Part shown: positions 437-16,415 of the stretch, piece after piece
Position numbering within the stretch: position 1 is the stretch's first letter
Layout of the letters: every line of letters begins with the position of its first letter
Origin: an uncultured Flavobacterium sp.
Lineage (GTDB): Bacteria; Bacteroidota; Bacteroidia; Flavobacteriales; Flavobacteriaceae
Assembly: GCF_946479975.1 (NCBI RefSeq)
Contig: NZ_CAMLIX010000109.1
Location: forward strand, 1-16,415
Direction of reading: 5' to 3'
DNA length: 16,415 bases
Made by a program: the position numbers and the translations under genes
The notes under the pieces: generated by a model
Told to the model about the DNA's origin: nothing
The model's input: the letters and a program-made list of their open reading frames with translations, nothing else
Databases searched by the model: none

Positions 437-510
437 GGTTTGGTAGTTCAGTTGGTTAGAATACATGCCTGTCACGCATGGGGTCGCGGGTTCGAGTCCC
501 GTCCAGACCG
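437..510 (+). tRNA. tRNA-Asp (anticodon GUC)
   Basis: A complete cloverleaf can be drawn. The acceptor stem GGTTTGG (437-443) pairs with CCAGACC (503-509), with one wobble pair. The anticodon stem CATGC/GCATG encloses loop CTGTCAC with GTC at 471-473, and a standard T-arm carries GTTCGAGTC. The discriminator base is G (510), as expected for Asp. The following bases are CCT, so the CCA end is not fully encoded. The gene has its own promoter (390-419) and terminator (522-555) and appears to be a single-gene unit. Confidence 0.97.
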
Positions 511-521
511 CCTAAGTTTGT

Positions 522-582: not shown

Positions 583-690
583 TTTGTCATTTCGACCGAA
601 GGGAGAAATCACACGCGGGATTCGACACAGATTGAAAAATTACTTTGTAGAGTTTCTAGTGTGATTTCTCCCTTCGGTCGAAATGACAAA
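583..690. repeat. Palindromic repeat element, copy E1 (108 bp)
   Basis: A perfect 32-bp inverted repeat (583-614 with 659-690) encloses a 44-base centre. The arm begins TTTGTCATTTCGACCGAAGG. It is closely related to copy E2 (6152-6256) in both arms and centre. It shares a 21-base stretch (644-664) with the reverse complement of copy E3 (8482-8502). It sits between the tRNA terminator and the AraC gene and contains no credible gene. Confidence 0.92.
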
Positions 691-1936: not shown

Positions 1937-3292
1937 ATGTTCCTTAAAACAACAAACTCTAAAGAAGATTGTTTCCCCAGAAGCTTATTGATTTTACTAA
2001 TGGTATTAGTATTCAATAGTTTACAAGCTCAGGAAGTTCATACGGTTTCTTTACAAGAAGCAATGAAACTGGCGAAGGAAAACAACAAAAAAGTCCTTAA
2101 ATCTCAACTGGAGATTACGCTCGCTGAGCAAAACATCAAAGAAAGAAAAGAACTTAGACTGCCAGATGTAGAAGTCAACGGCATGTATTCGAGAATTACC
2201 AACATCACAGAATTTAAAGGAAATGGTTTCTTGAACGGAAAAGAAGTCACCAAGGCAATTCCTGAAATCTACGAAGTAAATTCGACTTTTAAAATGCCAA
2301 TTTACGTTGGAAACAAGATCAACAATGCGATTAAAATTGCAAATCAGGAAAACGAAATTGCAAAAATAAAATCGGAAAAAACAGAAAATGATATTGAGCT
2401 GCAAGTTGTGGCCAACTATCTGGCGATTTATAAAATGATGGAACTTCAAAAGATATTTGAAGAAAACATCAAAGAAGAGAAAAACCGGTTAAAAGAAGTA
2501 CAATCACTTCAAAAACATGGAACGATAACCAAAAATGAAGTTATACGTGCCGAATTACAGCTCTCAGATCGCGAATTGAATGCGCTTACAAACTCCAAAA
2601 ACATTAAAATCGCACTTCACGATCTGAAGACGTTGATTCAGATTCCAGAAAATGAAGAAATTGCAATCGACACAACGGCAACTTTAGACGAAACAAATGG
2701 TTTAGATCCGTATGATTTTTATCTAAATAAAGCTTTTCAAAACGAAGAAATGCGAATGGCAAGTCAGGAATTGGAAATCAGTAAAACCGAATTGAAACTG
2801 GTAAAAGGAAATTATCTGCCAAGCGTAAACTTCTTCGGAAATTATGGTTTTTATTATCCAAACTACAAATTTTTTCCGCCAAATCCTTATTTGTACACTT
2901 TAGGTCAGGTGGGAATTGAGGCTCGTTTTGATCTTTCTTCATTATATAAAAACAAAACGAAAGTTGCGCAGGCGAATACCAAAATCGAAATGCAACAAAT
3001 GAATTCTGAAATCATAAAAGATGAAATTCAGGATCAATTGTATAAAGAACACACGCAATATCAGGAAATCCTTGAAAAGTTTGTGGTTGTTGATAAAGCG
3101 TTGGATTTAGCCAATGAAAACTACCGAATTGTAAAGTTGAAATATTTAAATCAATTGGTTTTAATTACCGAAATGGTTGATGCTGATAATGCTTTGCTTC
3201 AGGCGAAATACAACAAGATTTCTACACATTTGGATGCTGTTTTGAAACATTATGAAATGATGCGAACAGCTGGGATTATGCCACAAATTTAA
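1937..3292 (+). CDS. TolC-family outer-membrane efflux channel
   Basis: This 451-residue protein is the outer-membrane channel of a tripartite exporter. An N-terminal signal (about residues 1-32, hydrophobic LLILLMVLVF ending SLQAQ) sends it across the inner membrane. The mature protein has the duplicated TolC/OEP pattern. Each half has a long amphipathic helical hairpin (about residues 40-215 and 270-450). The first half carries a transmembrane-strand-like segment around residue 110-130 (FKMPIYVGNKINNAI), and a matching one (GQVGIEARFDLSSLYKNKTK) lies in the second half. Length is normal for the family. It is the first gene of a same-strand set with an adaptor (148 bp downstream) and an MFS pump, so it should work with them. 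Substrate cannot be read from the sequence. Confidence 0.92.
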   Translation: MFLKTTNSKEDCFPRSLLILLMVLVFNSLQAQEVHTVSLQEAMKLAKENNKKVLKSQLEITLAEQNIKERKELRLPDVEVNGMYSRITNITEFKGNGFLNGKEVTKAIPEIYEVNSTFKMPIYVGNKINNAIKIANQENEIAKIKSEKTENDIELQVVANYLAIYKMMELQKIFEENIKEEKNRLKEVQSLQKHGTITKNEVIRAELQLSDRELNALTNSKNIKIALHDLKTLIQIPENEEIAIDTTATLDETNGLDPYDFYLNKAFQNEEMRMASQELEISKTELKLVKGNYLPSVNFFGNYGFYYPNYKFFPPNPYLYTLGQVGIEARFDLSSLYKNKTKVAQANTKIEMQQMNSEIIKDEIQDQLYKEHTQYQEILEKFVVVDKALDLANENYRIVKLKYLNQLVLITEMVDADNALLQAKYNKISTHLDAVLKHYEMMRTAGIMPQI

Positions 3293-3304
3293 GACTTATA
3301 AAAA

Positions 3305-3423
3305 AGTTCCGTAGGAACGATTCATATTGTAGCGCCGGATTTTAATCCGGGGAAGATTAGAAAAGAAAAATTCATATTGTAGCGTCGTCCCGAGGCTTCG
3401 GGATTAATCCGGGGAAGATTAGA
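3305..3423. repeat. Intra-operon direct repeat with nested small hairpins
   Basis: A GTTCC-GTAG-GAAC hairpin (3305-3317) is followed by two direct copies (3321-3361 and 3371-3423). Each copy starts TTCATATTGTAGCG and ends AATCCGGGGAAGATTAGA. In copy 1 the middle is the palindrome CCGGATTTTAATCCGG (3335-3350). Copy 2 carries a different middle containing TCCCGAGGCTTCGGGA (3388-3403), which occurs again at 6101-6116. The block sits between the channel and adaptor genes, where hairpins could affect relative expression. Confidence 0.8.
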
Positions 3424-3440
3424 GATAAAAAATAAAAAAG

Positions 3441-4493
3441 ATGGTAAAAATAAAAAATGAAACTAAGAGAAATAGAACGTTTCATATATTGATAACAGTG
3501 ATTGCGTGTGCGCTGGTAATAAGCGGAGTTATTTTAGGAATTTGGTTTTATGTGTTTAATCGAAATCACGAAGAAACCAATGACGCTCAGGTGGAGCAAT
3601 ACGTTACACCAATTATGTCGAGAATTACGGGTTATGTGCAGGAAGTTCGTTTTAACGAAAATCAGTTTGTACATAGAGGCGATACTTTGGTCGTGATTGA
3701 TAATAGAGAATACAAATCGAAATTGAATGTGGCTTTGGCCGATGTTCAAAACGCACAGCAAAATAGCGTTGTGGCGCAGAAAAACGCCATTAATACTGCA
3801 AGTGCAACGGCAATTAACGAATCGCAATTGGATGCTGCAAAATCGAATCTTTGGAAAACCAAATTAGAATTCGAAAGGTATAAAGCTTTGGTAAAAGAGG
3901 AAGCAGCAACTTCTCAGCAATTAGAAAAAGTAAAGGCAGATTATGAATCGGCGCAAGCACATTTTTCAGAAATGAAAAACAGAATTCACTCCGCTACTTT
4001 GAGTACTTCTGTTGCTGAAGCAAATGTTCCAACAACGCAAACTAATATTGCTTCAAAACAAGCTGTTGCAGATAATGCGGCATTATTTCTTTCGTACACG
4101 ATTATTACAGCGCCTTATGACGGCTGGGTTGGAAAACGAACTTTACAGCCAGGACAAATGGTAAAAGAAGGGCAGTCTCTGCTTTCTATTGTAAGTAAAG
4201 AAAAATGGATTACAGCCAATTTTAAAGAAACACAATTGCAATATTTAACCGTTGGGCAAGAAGTCGAAATCAAGGCTGATGCCATAAACGACAAAACTTT
4301 TGTGGGAACAATTGCTTCATTATCGCCTGCGAGTGGTGCGAGATTTTCGTTGCTTCCTCCTGATAATGCAACTGGAAACTTCGTAAAAATCGAACAGAGA
4401 ATTCCGGTTCGAATTCAGTTAAAAGAACAAGACAAACAAACCGATTTTTTAAGAGCAGGAATGAACATTACGGTTGTTGCTGCACACAAATAA
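3441..4493 (+). CDS. EmrA/HlyD-family periplasmic adaptor subunit
   Basis: This 350-residue membrane-fusion protein links an inner-membrane pump to the outer-membrane channel. One N-terminal membrane helix (about residues 15-38) anchors it. The first lipoyl-like half follows at 51-95 (VTPIMSRITGYVQEV, GDTLVVID). Then comes an alpha-helical hairpin rich in Ala/Gln/Glu (about 95-212), the second lipoyl half (223-252, TAPYDGWVGKRTLQPGQMV) and the beta-barrel. The barrel carries the EmrA-type motif at 293-314 (SLSPASGARFSLLPPDN). The start at 3441 is preceded by an A-rich leader (AATAAAAAAG) rather than a Shine-Dalgarno site. The MFS gene begins one base after the stop codon, implying tight co-expression. 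The EmrA rather than RND-adaptor assignment rests on the motif and on the MFS partner. Confidence 0.93.
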   Translation: MVKIKNETKRNRTFHILITVIACALVISGVILGIWFYVFNRNHEETNDAQVEQYVTPIMSRITGYVQEVRFNENQFVHRGDTLVVIDNREYKSKLNVALADVQNAQQNSVVAQKNAINTASATAINESQLDAAKSNLWKTKLEFERYKALVKEEAATSQQLEKVKADYESAQAHFSEMKNRIHSATLSTSVAEANVPTTQTNIASKQAVADNAALFLSYTIITAPYDGWVGKRTLQPGQMVKEGQSLLSIVSKEKWITANFKETQLQYLTVGQEVEIKADAINDKTFVGTIASLSPASGARFSLLPPDNATGNFVKIEQRIPVRIQLKEQDKQTDFLRAGMNITVVAAHK

Positions 4494-4494
4494 A

Positions 4495-6078
4495 ATGGAA
4501 GATAAAAGTATATTTAAATCTTGGGTTCCAAAATGGGCGATCATTCTTATTTTGTTCGTTTGTTTGCTGCATTCCATGATTTTATTGGGCGTTTACACGT
4601 CAAACGTAACCTATGCGGCAAGTTTTCTGGATATTGAGCCTGAAGATTTGCAATTTGCAATGTGCGTTACATATGGAACGCTGCTGGCAACCATTTTGAT
4701 CGAAAGCCGATTTTCGAGTTTTTTCCCTGCAAAAAATTACTTGATGGCGGTATATTCGTTAATCGGAATAACGATTGTGGCGTCGGCTTATATTACAAGT
4801 TTTCCGATTTTCTTATTGATGAGAGTTGCCGAGGGAATTCTGATGGCACTTCCTGTAATTACAATCAGACAATTGCTTATTGAGCAGTTTAATTCTAAAA
4901 ATGCCATAATTATTGGGTTTTCATTTTATTACGGTTCGCTGTTGTTGTCCACGCCGTTTATTATGAATATTGCCGTTTGGTTTCTAGATCATTACGACTG
5001 GAAATACATGCTTTATGTTTCAGGGGGACTGCAGGTTTTAAATGTCTTTTTAATCTTAGTTACTTTCAGAGGGCACCGAATTACAAAGAAGATTCCGTTG
5101 TATCAAATCGACTGGATGAGTTATTTTTTGGTTTTAATTTCGATTCTTTGCGGTGCCTATTTTTTTGTTTATGCCGAGAAAAAATATTGGTTCCAATCTT
5201 CAGAAATGGTTTTAATGCTGATGGTTTCGCTCATTACAGGTGGCTTATTCATATTTAAAGAGCGTTTGGTAAAAAGACCAAGTTTTAATTTTGAAGTCAT
5301 AAAATACGCCAATCTGCGCATCGGATTTCTATTGTTTTTCCTTTTCTATATCAGCAGGGCGACATTGAGTCTTTGCCATTCGGCAATGTTTTCTATTTGG
5401 AATTGGGATCCATCGCGTGTGGCGGGCGTGCAGTACATAAATGGATTAGGAAACGTAATCGGACTTATTTTAGCCGCTTTTTTCCTGATGAAATCCGTTT
5501 CAACTAAAATTATTTTCATGATTGGTTTTACGCTTATTGCGATATTTCACTTCTGGTTTACGTTTCTTTTCGTGCCAGATGTGGCGCTAAGCGATATTAT
5601 TATTCCCTATATTTTGCAAGGAATCGGTGTTGGATTTTTATTTGTTCCGCTCATCTTATTTACTACATCATCGGTTCCGGCAAATATGGCGGTTTCTTCG
5701 GGAATTGTTGGAGTTTCAGGACGTTTTTGGGGAAGTACAATTGGTTTCTGTGTCATGCAGAATGCGATGGTTTTCTTGAACAAAAAACACTTTTTAAAAC
5801 TAAGCCAATTCGTAACCGGCGATAATCCCGAAGCTCAAAACGTCATTGCTTCAACAACGCAAAGTTTTATTGCCAAAGGATATTCTGCAGATAATGCGAA
5901 TGTTTTGGCTATGAAAAAGCTCTTCGGAACCATTTCTAAACAATCCACTTTATTGGCCGATATGGAAATTTATACTGTTGTTGGTTATGGTTTAGTAGTT
6001 TTGATTATTCTAATTGCGTGTAATCAGCATTTGAGACAGACGATGACTTTGGTTAAAAGTAAAATTTGGATAGGCTAA
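4495..6078 (+). CDS. MFS efflux transporter, DHA2 (EmrB/QacA)-like
   Basis: A 527-residue polytopic inner-membrane protein, long enough for the 14-helix DHA2 drug:proton antiporters. Hydrophobic helices begin at about residue 14 (WAIILILFVCLLHSMILLG) and recur to the C-terminus. A DHA2-like LLMRVAEGILMALPVITIRQLL stretch (split near residue 110) lies in the N-terminal half. The SGIVGVSGRFWGSTIG stretch near 402-417 resembles the conserved glycine-rich helix of the family's C-terminal half. A soluble loop near residues 430-480 precedes the last helix. The ATG at 4495 is chosen over an in-frame TTG at 4474 because it sits one base past the adaptor stop. With the adaptor and TolC-like channel it forms an EmrAB-TolC-type exporter. 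Substrate unknown. Confidence 0.9.
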   Translation: MEDKSIFKSWVPKWAIILILFVCLLHSMILLGVYTSNVTYAASFLDIEPEDLQFAMCVTYGTLLATILIESRFSSFFPAKNYLMAVYSLIGITIVASAYITSFPIFLLMRVAEGILMALPVITIRQLLIEQFNSKNAIIIGFSFYYGSLLLSTPFIMNIAVWFLDHYDWKYMLYVSGGLQVLNVFLILVTFRGHRITKKIPLYQIDWMSYFLVLISILCGAYFFVYAEKKYWFQSSEMVLMLMVSLITGGLFIFKERLVKRPSFNFEVIKYANLRIGFLLFFLFYISRATLSLCHSAMFSIWNWDPSRVAGVQYINGLGNVIGLILAAFFLMKSVSTKIIFMIGFTLIAIFHFWFTFLFVPDVALSDIIIPYILQGIGVGFLFVPLILFTTSSVPANMAVSSGIVGVSGRFWGSTIGFCVMQNAMVFLNKKHFLKLSQFVTGDNPEAQNVIASTTQSFIAKGYSADNANVLAMKKLFGTISKQSTLLADMEIYTVVGYGLVVLIILIACNQHLRQTMTLVKSKIWIG

Positions 6079-6116: not shown

Positions 6117-6151
6117 CCAAATTCCAAAAAGCAACACGTTATTCCGTGTAG

Positions 6152-6256
6152 TTTGTCATTTCGAGGAACGAGAAATCACACGCGGGATTCTGCACAGATT
6201 GGAAAATTCCTTGTCGAGTTACTAGTGTGATTTCTCCCTTCGGTCGAAATGACAAA
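6152..6256. repeat. Palindromic repeat element, copy E2
   Basis: The right arm (6225-6256) is nearly identical to that of E1, with GTGTGATTTCTCCCTTCGGT in common. The left arm (TTTGTCATTTCGAGGAACGAG) is a variant that pairs imperfectly in its middle. The centre (GCGGGATTCTGCACAGATTG...) differs from E1 at only a few positions, so E1 and E2 are the closest pair in the window. Confidence 0.88.
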
Positions 6257-6280
6257 CAGTACGTAATAAGCATTGGTTAA

Positions 6281-8457: not shown

Positions 8458-8560
8458 TTTGTCATCCTGACGAAGGAAGGGTCACACTAGAAACTCTACA
8501 AAATTTAGCGACAAAAATTGCGGAGCTACTGTGTGATCCTTCCTTCGTCAGGATGACAAA
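8458..8560. repeat. Palindromic repeat element, copy E3
   Basis: The arms 8458-8487 and 8531-8560 pair at 29 of 30 positions, and the only difference is a G-T wobble. The arm sequence (GTCATCCTGACGAAGGAAGG) differs from E1/E2 in the middle but keeps TTTGTCAT and TCACAC. Its centre carries, in inverse orientation, the 21 bases found at 644-664 in E1. It fills the 307-bp gap between the DUF1080 and XRE genes together with the AT-rich upstream region of the DUF1080 gene. Confidence 0.92.
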
Positions 8561-9232: not shown

Positions 9233-9352
9233 AACAACAACACCGACAAAAATTAAAATGATTTCCATAATTTTTTTCATGTGTACAAACTGTTGGTAAT
9301 GTTGGGGATCTTCTTTCGTCAAGGTGAGTTTAAGAAAGGTTTTTCCATGCAG

Positions 9353-9458
9353 TTTGTCATTTCGACGAAAGGAGAAATCTTCGCAAGTAACTCCGTTGCT
9401 AATATCCAATCTTTGTGGAGCTTCTCGTGGAGATTTCTCCTTTCGTCGAAATGACAAA
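9353..9458. repeat. Palindromic repeat element, copy E4
   Basis: A perfect 28-bp inverted repeat (9353-9380 with 9431-9458) has arm TTTGTCATTTCGACGAAAGG and a 50-base centre unlike E1/E2 but partly shared with the half copy at 7156-7205. The 449-bp gap between 9186 and 9636 holds this, the half arm at 9209, a possible 23-residue peptide frame (9209-9280, minus) and the promoter region of the next gene. I see no other gene there. Confidence 0.92.
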
Positions 9459-9562
9459 ACTAAATTGGAAATGTCTCTCAGAGCTGAAAACTAGAGTATT
9501 AATTTGTAATTAAATACAATGTCAAGTAAAAACGTATTATTAATTAGTAGATAAATTTAATA

Positions 9563-10196: not shown

Positions 10197-10281
10197 TGGT
10201 GCGGATAATAGGACTCGAACCTACACGCCTTGCGGCACCAGATCCTAAGTCTGGCATGTCTACCAATTTCACCATATCCGC
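10197..10281 (-). tRNA. tRNA-Leu (anticodon UAG)
   Basis: A class II tRNA with acceptor stem GCGGATA (10275-10281) pairing with TATCCGC (10201-10207), discriminator A at 10200 and an encoded CCA (10197-10199). The anticodon stem CCAGA/TCTGG surrounds CTTAGGA with TAG at 10245-10247, so it reads CUN codons. A long variable arm (GTGCCGCAAGGCGT) and the T-loop GTTCGAGTC are visible. Unlike the tRNA-Asp in this window, its CCA end is encoded. Confidence 0.97.
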
Positions 10282-11783: not shown

Positions 11784-12290
11784 TTAACCGCAAAGGGCGC
11801 TAAGAATTACGCAAAGGTCGCTAAGATTTTATGCGGATAACATTGAAATTTACGCAGAGATCGCAAAGAATTTACGCGGAGTACGCTAAGATTTTTTTAT
11901 TAAGATTTATAAAAGTTCGCAAAGCTGTATCATATAGCTTTGCGAACTTTGCGTTTTATGGAGATAATCCTTAGATAAAACCTTAGCGATCTTTGCGTTA
12001 TTTTTTTTACTGCAAATAATACGAAGGTTACGCAAAGGTCGCAAAGTTTTTACGCGGAGTACGCTAAGATTTTTTTGATTAAGATTTATAAGAGTTCGCA
12101 AAGCTGTATTTACAAAGCTTTGCGAACTTTGCGTTTTATGTAGATAACAATTAGATAAAAATCTTAGCGTTCTTTGCGTTATTTTTTTAACCGCTAAGAA
12201 TTTACTAGAGTTCGCAAAGTTTATGTACAAAGCTTTGCGAACTTTGCGTTTTTAATCATAATCTAATGCAAAAAACCTCGCGTCCTTTGC
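11784..12290. repeat. Tandem GCAAAG-hairpin array (three units)
   Basis: Units share CGCAAAGGTCGCTAAG-type words, a GAGTACGCTAAGATTTTTTT stretch repeated at a 178-bp period (11875 and 12053), and a hairpin followed by TTTGCGTTTTAT. The three hairpins are 11912-11926/11936-11950 (15 bp perfect), 12093-12105/12116-12128 (13 bp perfect) and 12209-12219/12233-12243 (11 bp perfect). Each stem pairs TTCGCAAAG with CTTTGCGAA. Units 1 and 2 are near-identical and unit 3 is shortened. No gene is supported between 11780 and 12484. The last 180 bases are plain AT-rich sequence with a possible promoter. Confidence 0.9.
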
Positions 12291-12354
12291 GTTATTTCTT
12301 CGTCCAATGTGTTGGAATTTCTCATTTAAATATTTTTAATTTTTTAATGTTTTG

Positions 12355-15373: not shown

Positions 15374-16369
15374 CTAAAATAAGTCCGGATTATATCCAAA
15401 ATACGGTACTTTTTGTTCGTTAAAAATTACTCCGTATTCTTCTAATTCTTTCAATATGGGTTCGTAAACTTCTTTTTTAATCGGAAGCTGAACACCGGGA
15501 GTTGTGATTTTTCCATTCAAAATCAATAATGTAGCAATTGCAACTGGAAGTCCGACTGTTTTTGCCATTGCTGTGTAGGTTTGGTCGTCGCCAATGCAAA
15601 CCATTTTAGAATCAATTTGTTTCTTCTCGCCATTCAATTCATAACCAAATTTATGATACATCACAATCATATCTTTATCGTCTGGTTCCAAAGCCCAGCT
15701 GTCGGTCAGGATTTTTTCTAAGATTTGAGCCGGAGTAGCATTCGGTAGATTTACTTTTTTATTTGGGTTAAATAAATCCAGTTCCAAAAGTTTGTCCCAC
15801 ATAATATCGTCCTGATCGATTTTTAAAATTAAACGCGTTTTAATTTCAACTGAATCTGTTGGATGATAAGGCAGAAAAGAATTGATAAACTGACGATAGC
15901 TCATATCTTCAGAACCTTCAATAATATAACTGTCATCGGTCATTCCGAGTTGTACAAACATATTCCATGCGCGGGAATAACCCACTCTTCTAATTGTTCC
16001 TCTGTATAAAGTCAGAATATCATCTAAACCATAAATTGACCGGTATTTTAAAGAATCCCGATTCGAATAGGCTTCAAATTTTCCATAACCTTCTACTTCG
16101 AGAAATTCAGTTCTACGAAATAAAGCGCTGTACGGAATATATTTATAAGTTCCTTCCTGAATAAATTTGGCGGCGCCTCCTTGTCCCGCCAGAACAACAT
16201 TTCTTGGCGCCCAAGTAAATTTGTAATTCCACAGATTATTATCTGATTCAGGTGCTACAAGTCCACCGCAGAACGATTCAAACAAAAGCATTTTGCCACC
16301 TTTTGCTCTAATTTCATCAATAACTTTCATGGCGCTCATATGATCAATTCCAGGATCGAGGCCAATTTC
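15374..16369 (-). CDS. Saccharopine dehydrogenase family protein, 5'-truncated
   Basis: 331 residues of the C-terminal part of a LYS9-like saccharopine reductase/dehydrogenase. The reading frame does not begin at the Met at 16339. It continues through HDIGPDLGIE (reading upstream), giving EIGLDPGIDHMSAMKVID, and LDPGIDHM is the conserved family segment. The substrate-binding domain follows (FESFCGGLVAPES, NVVLAGQGGAAKFI). The C-terminus returns to the Rossmann-side segment TYTAMAKTVGLPVAIATLLIL near residues 270-290 of the visible part. The N-terminal NAD(P)-binding portion, probably a hundred or more residues, is missing because the contig ends. In the family these enzymes interconvert saccharopine with glutamate and aminoadipate semialdehyde in lysine metabolism; no partner gene is visible here to confirm that role. 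Confidence 0.92.
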   Translation of the reverse strand, partial: EIGLDPGIDHMSAMKVIDEIRAKGGKMLLFESFCGGLVAPESDNNLWNYKFTWAPRNVVLAGQGGAAKFIQEGTYKYIPYSALFRRTEFLEVEGYGKFEAYSNRDSLKYRSIYGLDDILTLYRGTIRRVGYSRAWNMFVQLGMTDDSYIIEGSEDMSYRQFINSFLPYHPTDSVEIKTRLILKIDQDDIMWDKLLELDLFNPNKKVNLPNATPAQILEKILTDSWALEPDDKDMIVMYHKFGYELNGEKKQIDSKMVCIGDDQTYTAMAKTVGLPVAIATLLILNGKITTPGVQLPIKKEVYEPILKELEEYGVIFNEQKVPYFGYNPDLF

Positions 16370-16415
16370 AGATCGGAAGAGCGTCGTGTAGGGAAAGAGT
16401 GTAGATCTCGGTGGT
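16370..16415. other. Illumina adapter sequence (not genomic)
   Basis: Beginning AGATCGGAAGAGCGTCGTGT and ending AGATCTCGGTGGT, these 46 bases match, base for base as I recall it, the start of the reverse complement of the TruSeq universal adapter. Translation of the adjacent gene is sensible up to 16369 and should be cut there. Confidence 0.98.

What the first reader, a model, noticed from the sequence alone, without database searches (positions are those of the whole stretch)
16370..16415. Untrimmed sequencing adapter at the contig end
The last 46 bases read as the Illumina TruSeq universal adapter in reverse complement. They are not part of the organism and would corrupt the 5' end of the saccharopine dehydrogenase-family gene, and any join made through them.
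Basis: partly seen in the sequence, partly recalled or inferred. Interest (0 to 1): 0.75.

Follow-up and report, generated by a model that had tools for sequence, protein, structure and literature searches.

The report
Leftover Illumina adapter at contig end
The last 46 letters of this Flavobacterium sequence are a piece of synthetic Illumina sequencing adapter that was never trimmed off, not bacterial DNA; it is an ordinary technical artefact that falsifies the start of one truncated gene.

Summary
Confirmed artefact. Window 16370-16415 is, letter for letter, the first 46 of the 58 bases of the Illumina TruSeq (single-index) universal adapter in reverse complement: 1 exact match, 0 in 200 shuffles. 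PMC10279531 prints the 58 bases. Of 104 relatives' loci, 101 (95 distinct) align to the preceding gene; every alignment stops at 16369 or at 16370 (a shared A), and the relatives' next 46 bases match the tail at 26%, near the 24% of shuffles. A saccharopine-dehydrogenase-like gene is cut: its first 123 codons are missing, and the open frame gains 15 false residues, PPRSTLFPYTTLFRS; the remaining 331 are 330/331 identical to F. chungbukense. Side result: a protein collection holds 'proteins' made of concatenated adapters (120 of 120 listed rows). No new biology.

The parts
16370..16415 (+). Illumina TruSeq universal adapter, reverse complement, first 46 of 58 bases (artefact, not genome)
   Evidence: exact match, 0 in 200 shuffles; 58-base adapter printed in PMC10279531; homology to relatives ends at 16369/16370
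16370..16414 (-). spurious in-frame extension PPRSTLFPYTTLFRS (15 codons) of the open frame
   Evidence: the ORF listing with open ends; frame translations
15374..16369 (-). genuine 3' part of a saccharopine-dehydrogenase-like gene: residues 124-454 of the 454-aa relative P0078, cut at the sequence end
   Evidence: PF16653 E=1.9e-81; 330 of 331 residues identical to P0078, F. chungbukense
15374..16339 (-). shorter ATG-initiated frame (321 aa) that a gene caller might report as a complete gene; the 454-aa relatives start 133 codons earlier

Best explanation
A library fragment of this Flavobacterium ended at the base now numbered 16369, and its insert was shorter than the read. The read went through the insert into the ligated adapter. 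The orientation AGATCGGAAGAGCGTCG... is that of read 2 running into the P5 or universal side, and it runs past base 33 without an i5 index, so the library used single-index (TruSeq-type) adapters. Shown here: identity, position, exact homology break, absence from the related genomes searched, and the same outward orientation at record ends of many other assemblies. Inferred: short insert, read 2, low coverage at the edge, single-index kit.
For: Exact 46-base match, none in 200 shuffles. Published 58-base adapter whose first 46 bases are identical (PMC10279531, passage); the first 49 also form part of an RT primer in PMC6377232 (passages). Alignments of 101 of 104 relatives' loci stop at 16369 (54) or 16370 (47); their next 46 bases average 26% identity to the tail against 24% for shuffles; with duplicate fetches merged, 95 distinct segments, 50 and 45. 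0 of 398 same-genus genomes for the 46-mer and for its first 33 bases. No match in 20,395 E. coli records. In the phage collection 6 of the 8 matching records match from base 1 to base 32 or 33 without a mismatch and a seventh matches bases 1-33 at 97%, which is where dual-index kits insert the i5 index (layout recalled); the window runs straight through.
Against: Nothing in the window speaks against it. Raw reads and the window's own assembly were not available, so short-insert read pairs were not seen. The string is not only at record ends elsewhere: 7 of 123 copies in viral contigs lie more than 200 bases from the outward record end, one of these (L123) 116 bases from the other end and pointing inward, and one phage record (KT254133) has the 46-mer internally. 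These may be joins made through an adapter; not examined further. 10 of 120 copies do not continue exactly with the rest of the adapter; by eye 6 of those differ from it at one to three bases.
Confidence: 0.995

Rival explanations
1. The 46 bases are genuine chromosomal or mobile DNA of the organism that happens to equal the adapter.
For: The open frame continues through it without a stop.
Against: All three reverse frames of the 46 bases are stop-free, so the open frame says nothing. 0 of 398 same-genus genomes have it; all 101 aligned relatives' loci (95 distinct) break off at the junction.
Confidence: 0.001
2. A chimeric join: an adapter dimer or ligation product fused library adapter to genomic DNA inside a molecule, with sequence of another place beyond it, cut off at the contig end.
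For: One phage record shows the adapter within the record with other sequence following; so do a few viral contigs.
Against: In the window nothing follows the adapter; plain read-through needs fewer steps.
Confidence: 0.03
3. The tail comes from deliberate constructs carrying universal-primer sequence (for example tagged amplicons).
For: The same string is used as an RT primer tail.
Against: The window is 16 kb of ordinary Flavobacterium-like DNA, largely collinear with stretches of four relatives; the tail starts inside a gene.
Confidence: 0.002

Closest known systems
Illumina TruSeq universal adapter (single-index), reverse complement, 58 bases as printed in PMC10279531 (there called the forward adapter; the TruSeq name is recalled)
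   Same: first 46 bases identical, outward orientation at a sequence end
   Different: the last 12 bases are absent; the window stops before them
Adapter copies at ends of IMG/VR contigs
   Same: same 46-mer, same outward orientation, 107 of 123 copies within 25 bases of the record end
   Different: 47 of 123 copies hold all 58 bases and many of those a run of A; the window does not reach that far
Saccharopine dehydrogenase family proteins of Flavobacterium (PF03435 + PF16653, 454 aa; e.g. P0078 F. chungbukense)
   Same: residues 124-454 are present, 330 of 331 identical
   Different: residues 1-123 absent, replaced in the open frame by 15 adapter-encoded residues

Membership tests
Illumina TruSeq universal adapter remnant | exact adapter sequence starting AGATCGGAAGAGC | tested here: met
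   46 of 46 bases; identical to the first 46 of the adapter printed in PMC10279531
Illumina TruSeq universal adapter remnant | genomic homology ends exactly where the adapter begins | tested here: met
   101 of 104 loci aligned (L019, L062 and L067 gave no alignment); ends at 16369 in 54 and 16370 in 47; 26% identity beyond, 24% for shuffles
Illumina TruSeq universal adapter remnant | absent from genomes of relatives | tested here: met
   0 of 398 same-genus genomes, also for the first 33 bases
Illumina TruSeq universal adapter remnant | lies at a contig end, pointing outward | tested here: inconclusive
   it is at the end of the window and points outward, but the own assembly is not held, so that 16415 is the contig end is taken on trust
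Illumina TruSeq universal adapter remnant | read pairs with inserts shorter than the read end at 16369 | not testable with these tools
   no reads available
Single-index rather than dual-index adapter | no i5 index between base 33 (..AGAGTGT) and AGATCTCGGTGGT | tested here: met
   the window runs through without interruption; the index position is recalled, consistent with 6 phage records matching only bases 1-32 or 1-33 without a mismatch and a seventh bases 1-33 at 97%
Saccharopine dehydrogenase-like protein | C-terminal domain PF16653 | tested here: met
   E=1.9e-81, residues 18-329 of the open frame
Saccharopine dehydrogenase-like protein | N-terminal NAD(P)-binding domain PF03435 | tested here: not met
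   not found in the window's open frame; listed for 112 of the 116 saccharopine relatives among the 120 rows, counted by eye. The gene is cut at the sequence end, so this is truncation, not loss

The most novel reading that the evidence does not exclude
Not about the window's biology: the same adapter, translated, makes up a large phantom 'protein family' in a public protein collection. Because the universal adapter contains an in-frame ATG and is stop-free in this direction, read concatenates give long open frames of the type MIRRPPRSTLFPYTTLFRS...RSEEHTSELQS...LVCRLLLEKKK. A search with one of them gave 7922 of 8000 scored candidates at E <= 1e-5, the candidate cap being reached; all 120 listed rows hold a universal-adapter and an index-adapter peptide. 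The other 7802 were not seen.
Probability: 0.9. Interest if true: 0.25.

Novelty: not a real feature. Interest (0 to 1): 0.07.

Why it matters
Practical only. The 46 bases should be trimmed before annotation or scaffolding: left in, they give the gene a false N-terminus, hide that it is truncated, and could join unrelated contigs that end in the same adapter. The wider lesson is that the 46 bases are stop-free in all three frames read towards the genome, so such errors can enter protein databases as plausible open frames.

Tried and rejected
Genuine DNA was rejected (see rivals). I looked for further adapter in the window: only the tail matches exactly. I looked for a protein in the large collection that carries this very junction: the 40-residue search across the junction lists no protein joining the adapter peptide to EIGLDPG in its 120 best rows (3928 hits, 8000 candidates scored); 4 of the 120 rows are adapter concatenates and 0 of the other 116 hold an adapter peptide. 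So I found no sign that the false N-terminus of this contig has spread there; the unlisted rows were not seen.

Papers. One search (terms LFPYTTLFRS, TLSLHDALPI, SFPTRRSSDL) gave one paper, PMC7949039, of which I saw one passage: a two-hybrid study stating that the TruSeq adaptor is translated into HSFPTRRSSDL and using TruSeq Single Index Adapters. One search (RSEEHTSELQS, DRKSTRLNSS, MIRRPPRSTLF, ISYAVFCLK) gave none; (at least 3 of 5 terms on spurious or adapter-derived proteins) gave none; (33-mer together with 'TruSeq Universal Adapter') gave none. These searches cover only the held open-licence library. Searches were seen as search listings with starts of abstracts. From them, passages were seen of PMC10898089 (four; a table note counts adaptors among common contaminants), PMC10279531 (two) and PMC6377232 (two). 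No paper was read whole.

Five sets of relatives' loci were duplicates; merged, 101 loci become 95 segments.

Full report
Observation. The last 46 bases of the window, 16370-16415, are AGATCGGAAGAGCGTCGTGTAGGGAAAGAGTGTAGATCTCGGTGGT. A scan of both strands with up to 3 mismatches finds only this place, and none of 200 shuffles has a match. The 13-base core has 5 matches at up to 3 mismatches, of which only the tail is exact; the other 4 are within chance. The adapter is printed in this orientation, 58 bases, in PMC10279531 (passage); the window has its first 46 bases without a difference. A primer with the first 49 of these bases is in PMC6377232 (passages). The product name TruSeq universal adapter is recalled.

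The junction. The window is Flavobacterium-like: its own assembly is not held, and the nearest held genome shares 24% of its sampled 31-letter words. Among 31 genomes searched 26 have a match to the terminal stretch, and 80 further loci, nearly all titled Flavobacterium or Flavobacteriaceae, were fetched by protein. Of 104 loci given to the boundary test, 101 aligned to window 16201-16415; L019, L062 and L067 did not. The alignments end at 16369 in 54 and at 16370 in 47 loci; the relatives carry G (54) or A (47) as next base, so the 47 only share the adapter's first A. Their next 46 bases match the tail at 26% on average (highest 33%), against 24% for shuffled tails, while the aligned part before it is 84% identical on average. 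Some loci were fetched twice; merged, they are 95 distinct segments, 50 ending at 16369 and 45 at 16370, with the same 26%. The 13-base adapter core is in 0 of the 104 loci.

The gene. On the minus strand the frame open to the end is 346 residues: 15 residues encoded by the adapter (PPRSTLFPYTTLFRS) and 331 real ones. The open frame carries PF16653, saccharopine dehydrogenase C-terminal domain, at residues 18-329, E=1.9e-81. The 331 residues are identical in 330 places to residues 124-454 of P0078, Flavobacterium chungbukense, although the DNA of that relative is only about 88-90% identical. Relatives have MNEIGLDPG at this point in 114 of 116 listed rows, where the window has adapter-encoded S before EIGLDPG. 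The N-terminal domain PF03435, listed for 112 of the 116 (counted by eye), is missing because the sequence ends. All three reverse frames of the 46 bases are stop-free, while two of the three forward frames have a stop: a gene whose 5' end lies beyond such a contig end gets a false open extension in whatever frame it enters.

Where else the string occurs. 0 of 398 genomes of the genus for the 46-mer and for its first 33 bases. No match in 20,395 E. coli records. One plasmid record of 72,556 matches 29 bases. Eight phage records of 50,697 match, one over the full length. They hold 123 copies. Measured to the record end in the outward direction, 107 lie within 25 bases, 116 within 200 and 7 further inside; one of the 7, L123, is 116 bases from the other end and points inward, the only copy within 200 bases of an end that does so, and one, L168, ends a stored stretch inside a long record. 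Of 120 copies with at least one following base, 110 continue exactly with the rest of the adapter as far as sequence is left and 10 do not. 47 copies have all 58 bases; of the 33 with 8 or more bases beyond, 32 have AAAAAAAA. This is the pattern of reads running through short inserts and off the molecule, not of a biological sequence.

How it arose. Established library chemistry (recalled): a read longer than its insert continues into the adapter; AGATCGGAAGAGCGTCG... is what read 2 sees. Dual-index kits have the i5 index after base 33; 6 of the 8 phage records match without a mismatch from base 1 to base 32 or 33 and a seventh matches bases 1-33 at 97%, whereas the window runs on into AGATCTCGGTGGT. 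So the library was probably a single-index one. That untrimmed reads at a coverage edge extended the contig is inference; no reads were available.

Side result. The protein search over the junction brought up 4 unrelated 'proteins' with the same peptide. All 120 listed rows hold the universal-adapter peptide LFPYTTLFR and an index-adapter peptide; 102 hold the former at least twice, and 41 begin with MIRRPPRS, i.e. at the ATG inside the adapter. They look like translations of concatenated library molecules. The candidates below the listed 120 were not seen. Searches found no paper in the held library that describes these peptides as database contaminants; one paper (PMC7949039, passage) states a translation of the adapter for another purpose.

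Verdict.

Noticed in passing
P0001, P0002, P0004, P0037, P0121-P0237 (protein collection): Predicted 'proteins' that are concatenated Illumina adapters with inserts; 120 of 120 rows listed hold peptides of both adapters. P0037 was read by eye only.
   Followed up: partly
L221 1001-1046 (KT254133.1 59297-59342, phage phiFenriz): The full 46-mer lies inside a phage record called complete, followed by 5 more adapter bases and then other sequence: perhaps a join made through an adapter. The host is written as a Chryseobacterium ('Chyrseobacterium') while the taxonomy line says Pbunavirus PB1, which looks odd.
   Followed up: no
L142 and L180 (IMGVR_UViG_2602041661_000004), L168, L201: Adapter copies more than 1 kb from either end of the viral record: possible joins through an adapter.
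   Followed up: no
L123 14320-14365: The one copy near a record end (116 bases) that points inward.
   Followed up: no
window 583-690, 6138-6269, 8458-8560, 9339-9462: Dispersed inverted-repeat elements with the core TTTGTCATTTCGACCGAAGGGAGAAATC or variants, with similar copies in the relatives' stretches. They resemble small palindromic interspersed elements.
   Followed up: no
window 11802-12300: Imperfect repeats with AAAGTTCGCAAAGC...GCTTTGCGAACTTTGCG-like units, three copies in several families.
   Followed up: no
window 437-512 and 10197-10281: tRNA-Asp (gtc, plus strand) and tRNA-Leu (tag, minus strand).
   Followed up: no
window 1937-6078: Three consecutive ORFs (451, 350 and 534 aa) that by eye look like an outer-membrane efflux protein, a membrane-fusion protein and an MFS transporter; no family search was run.
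   Followed up: no
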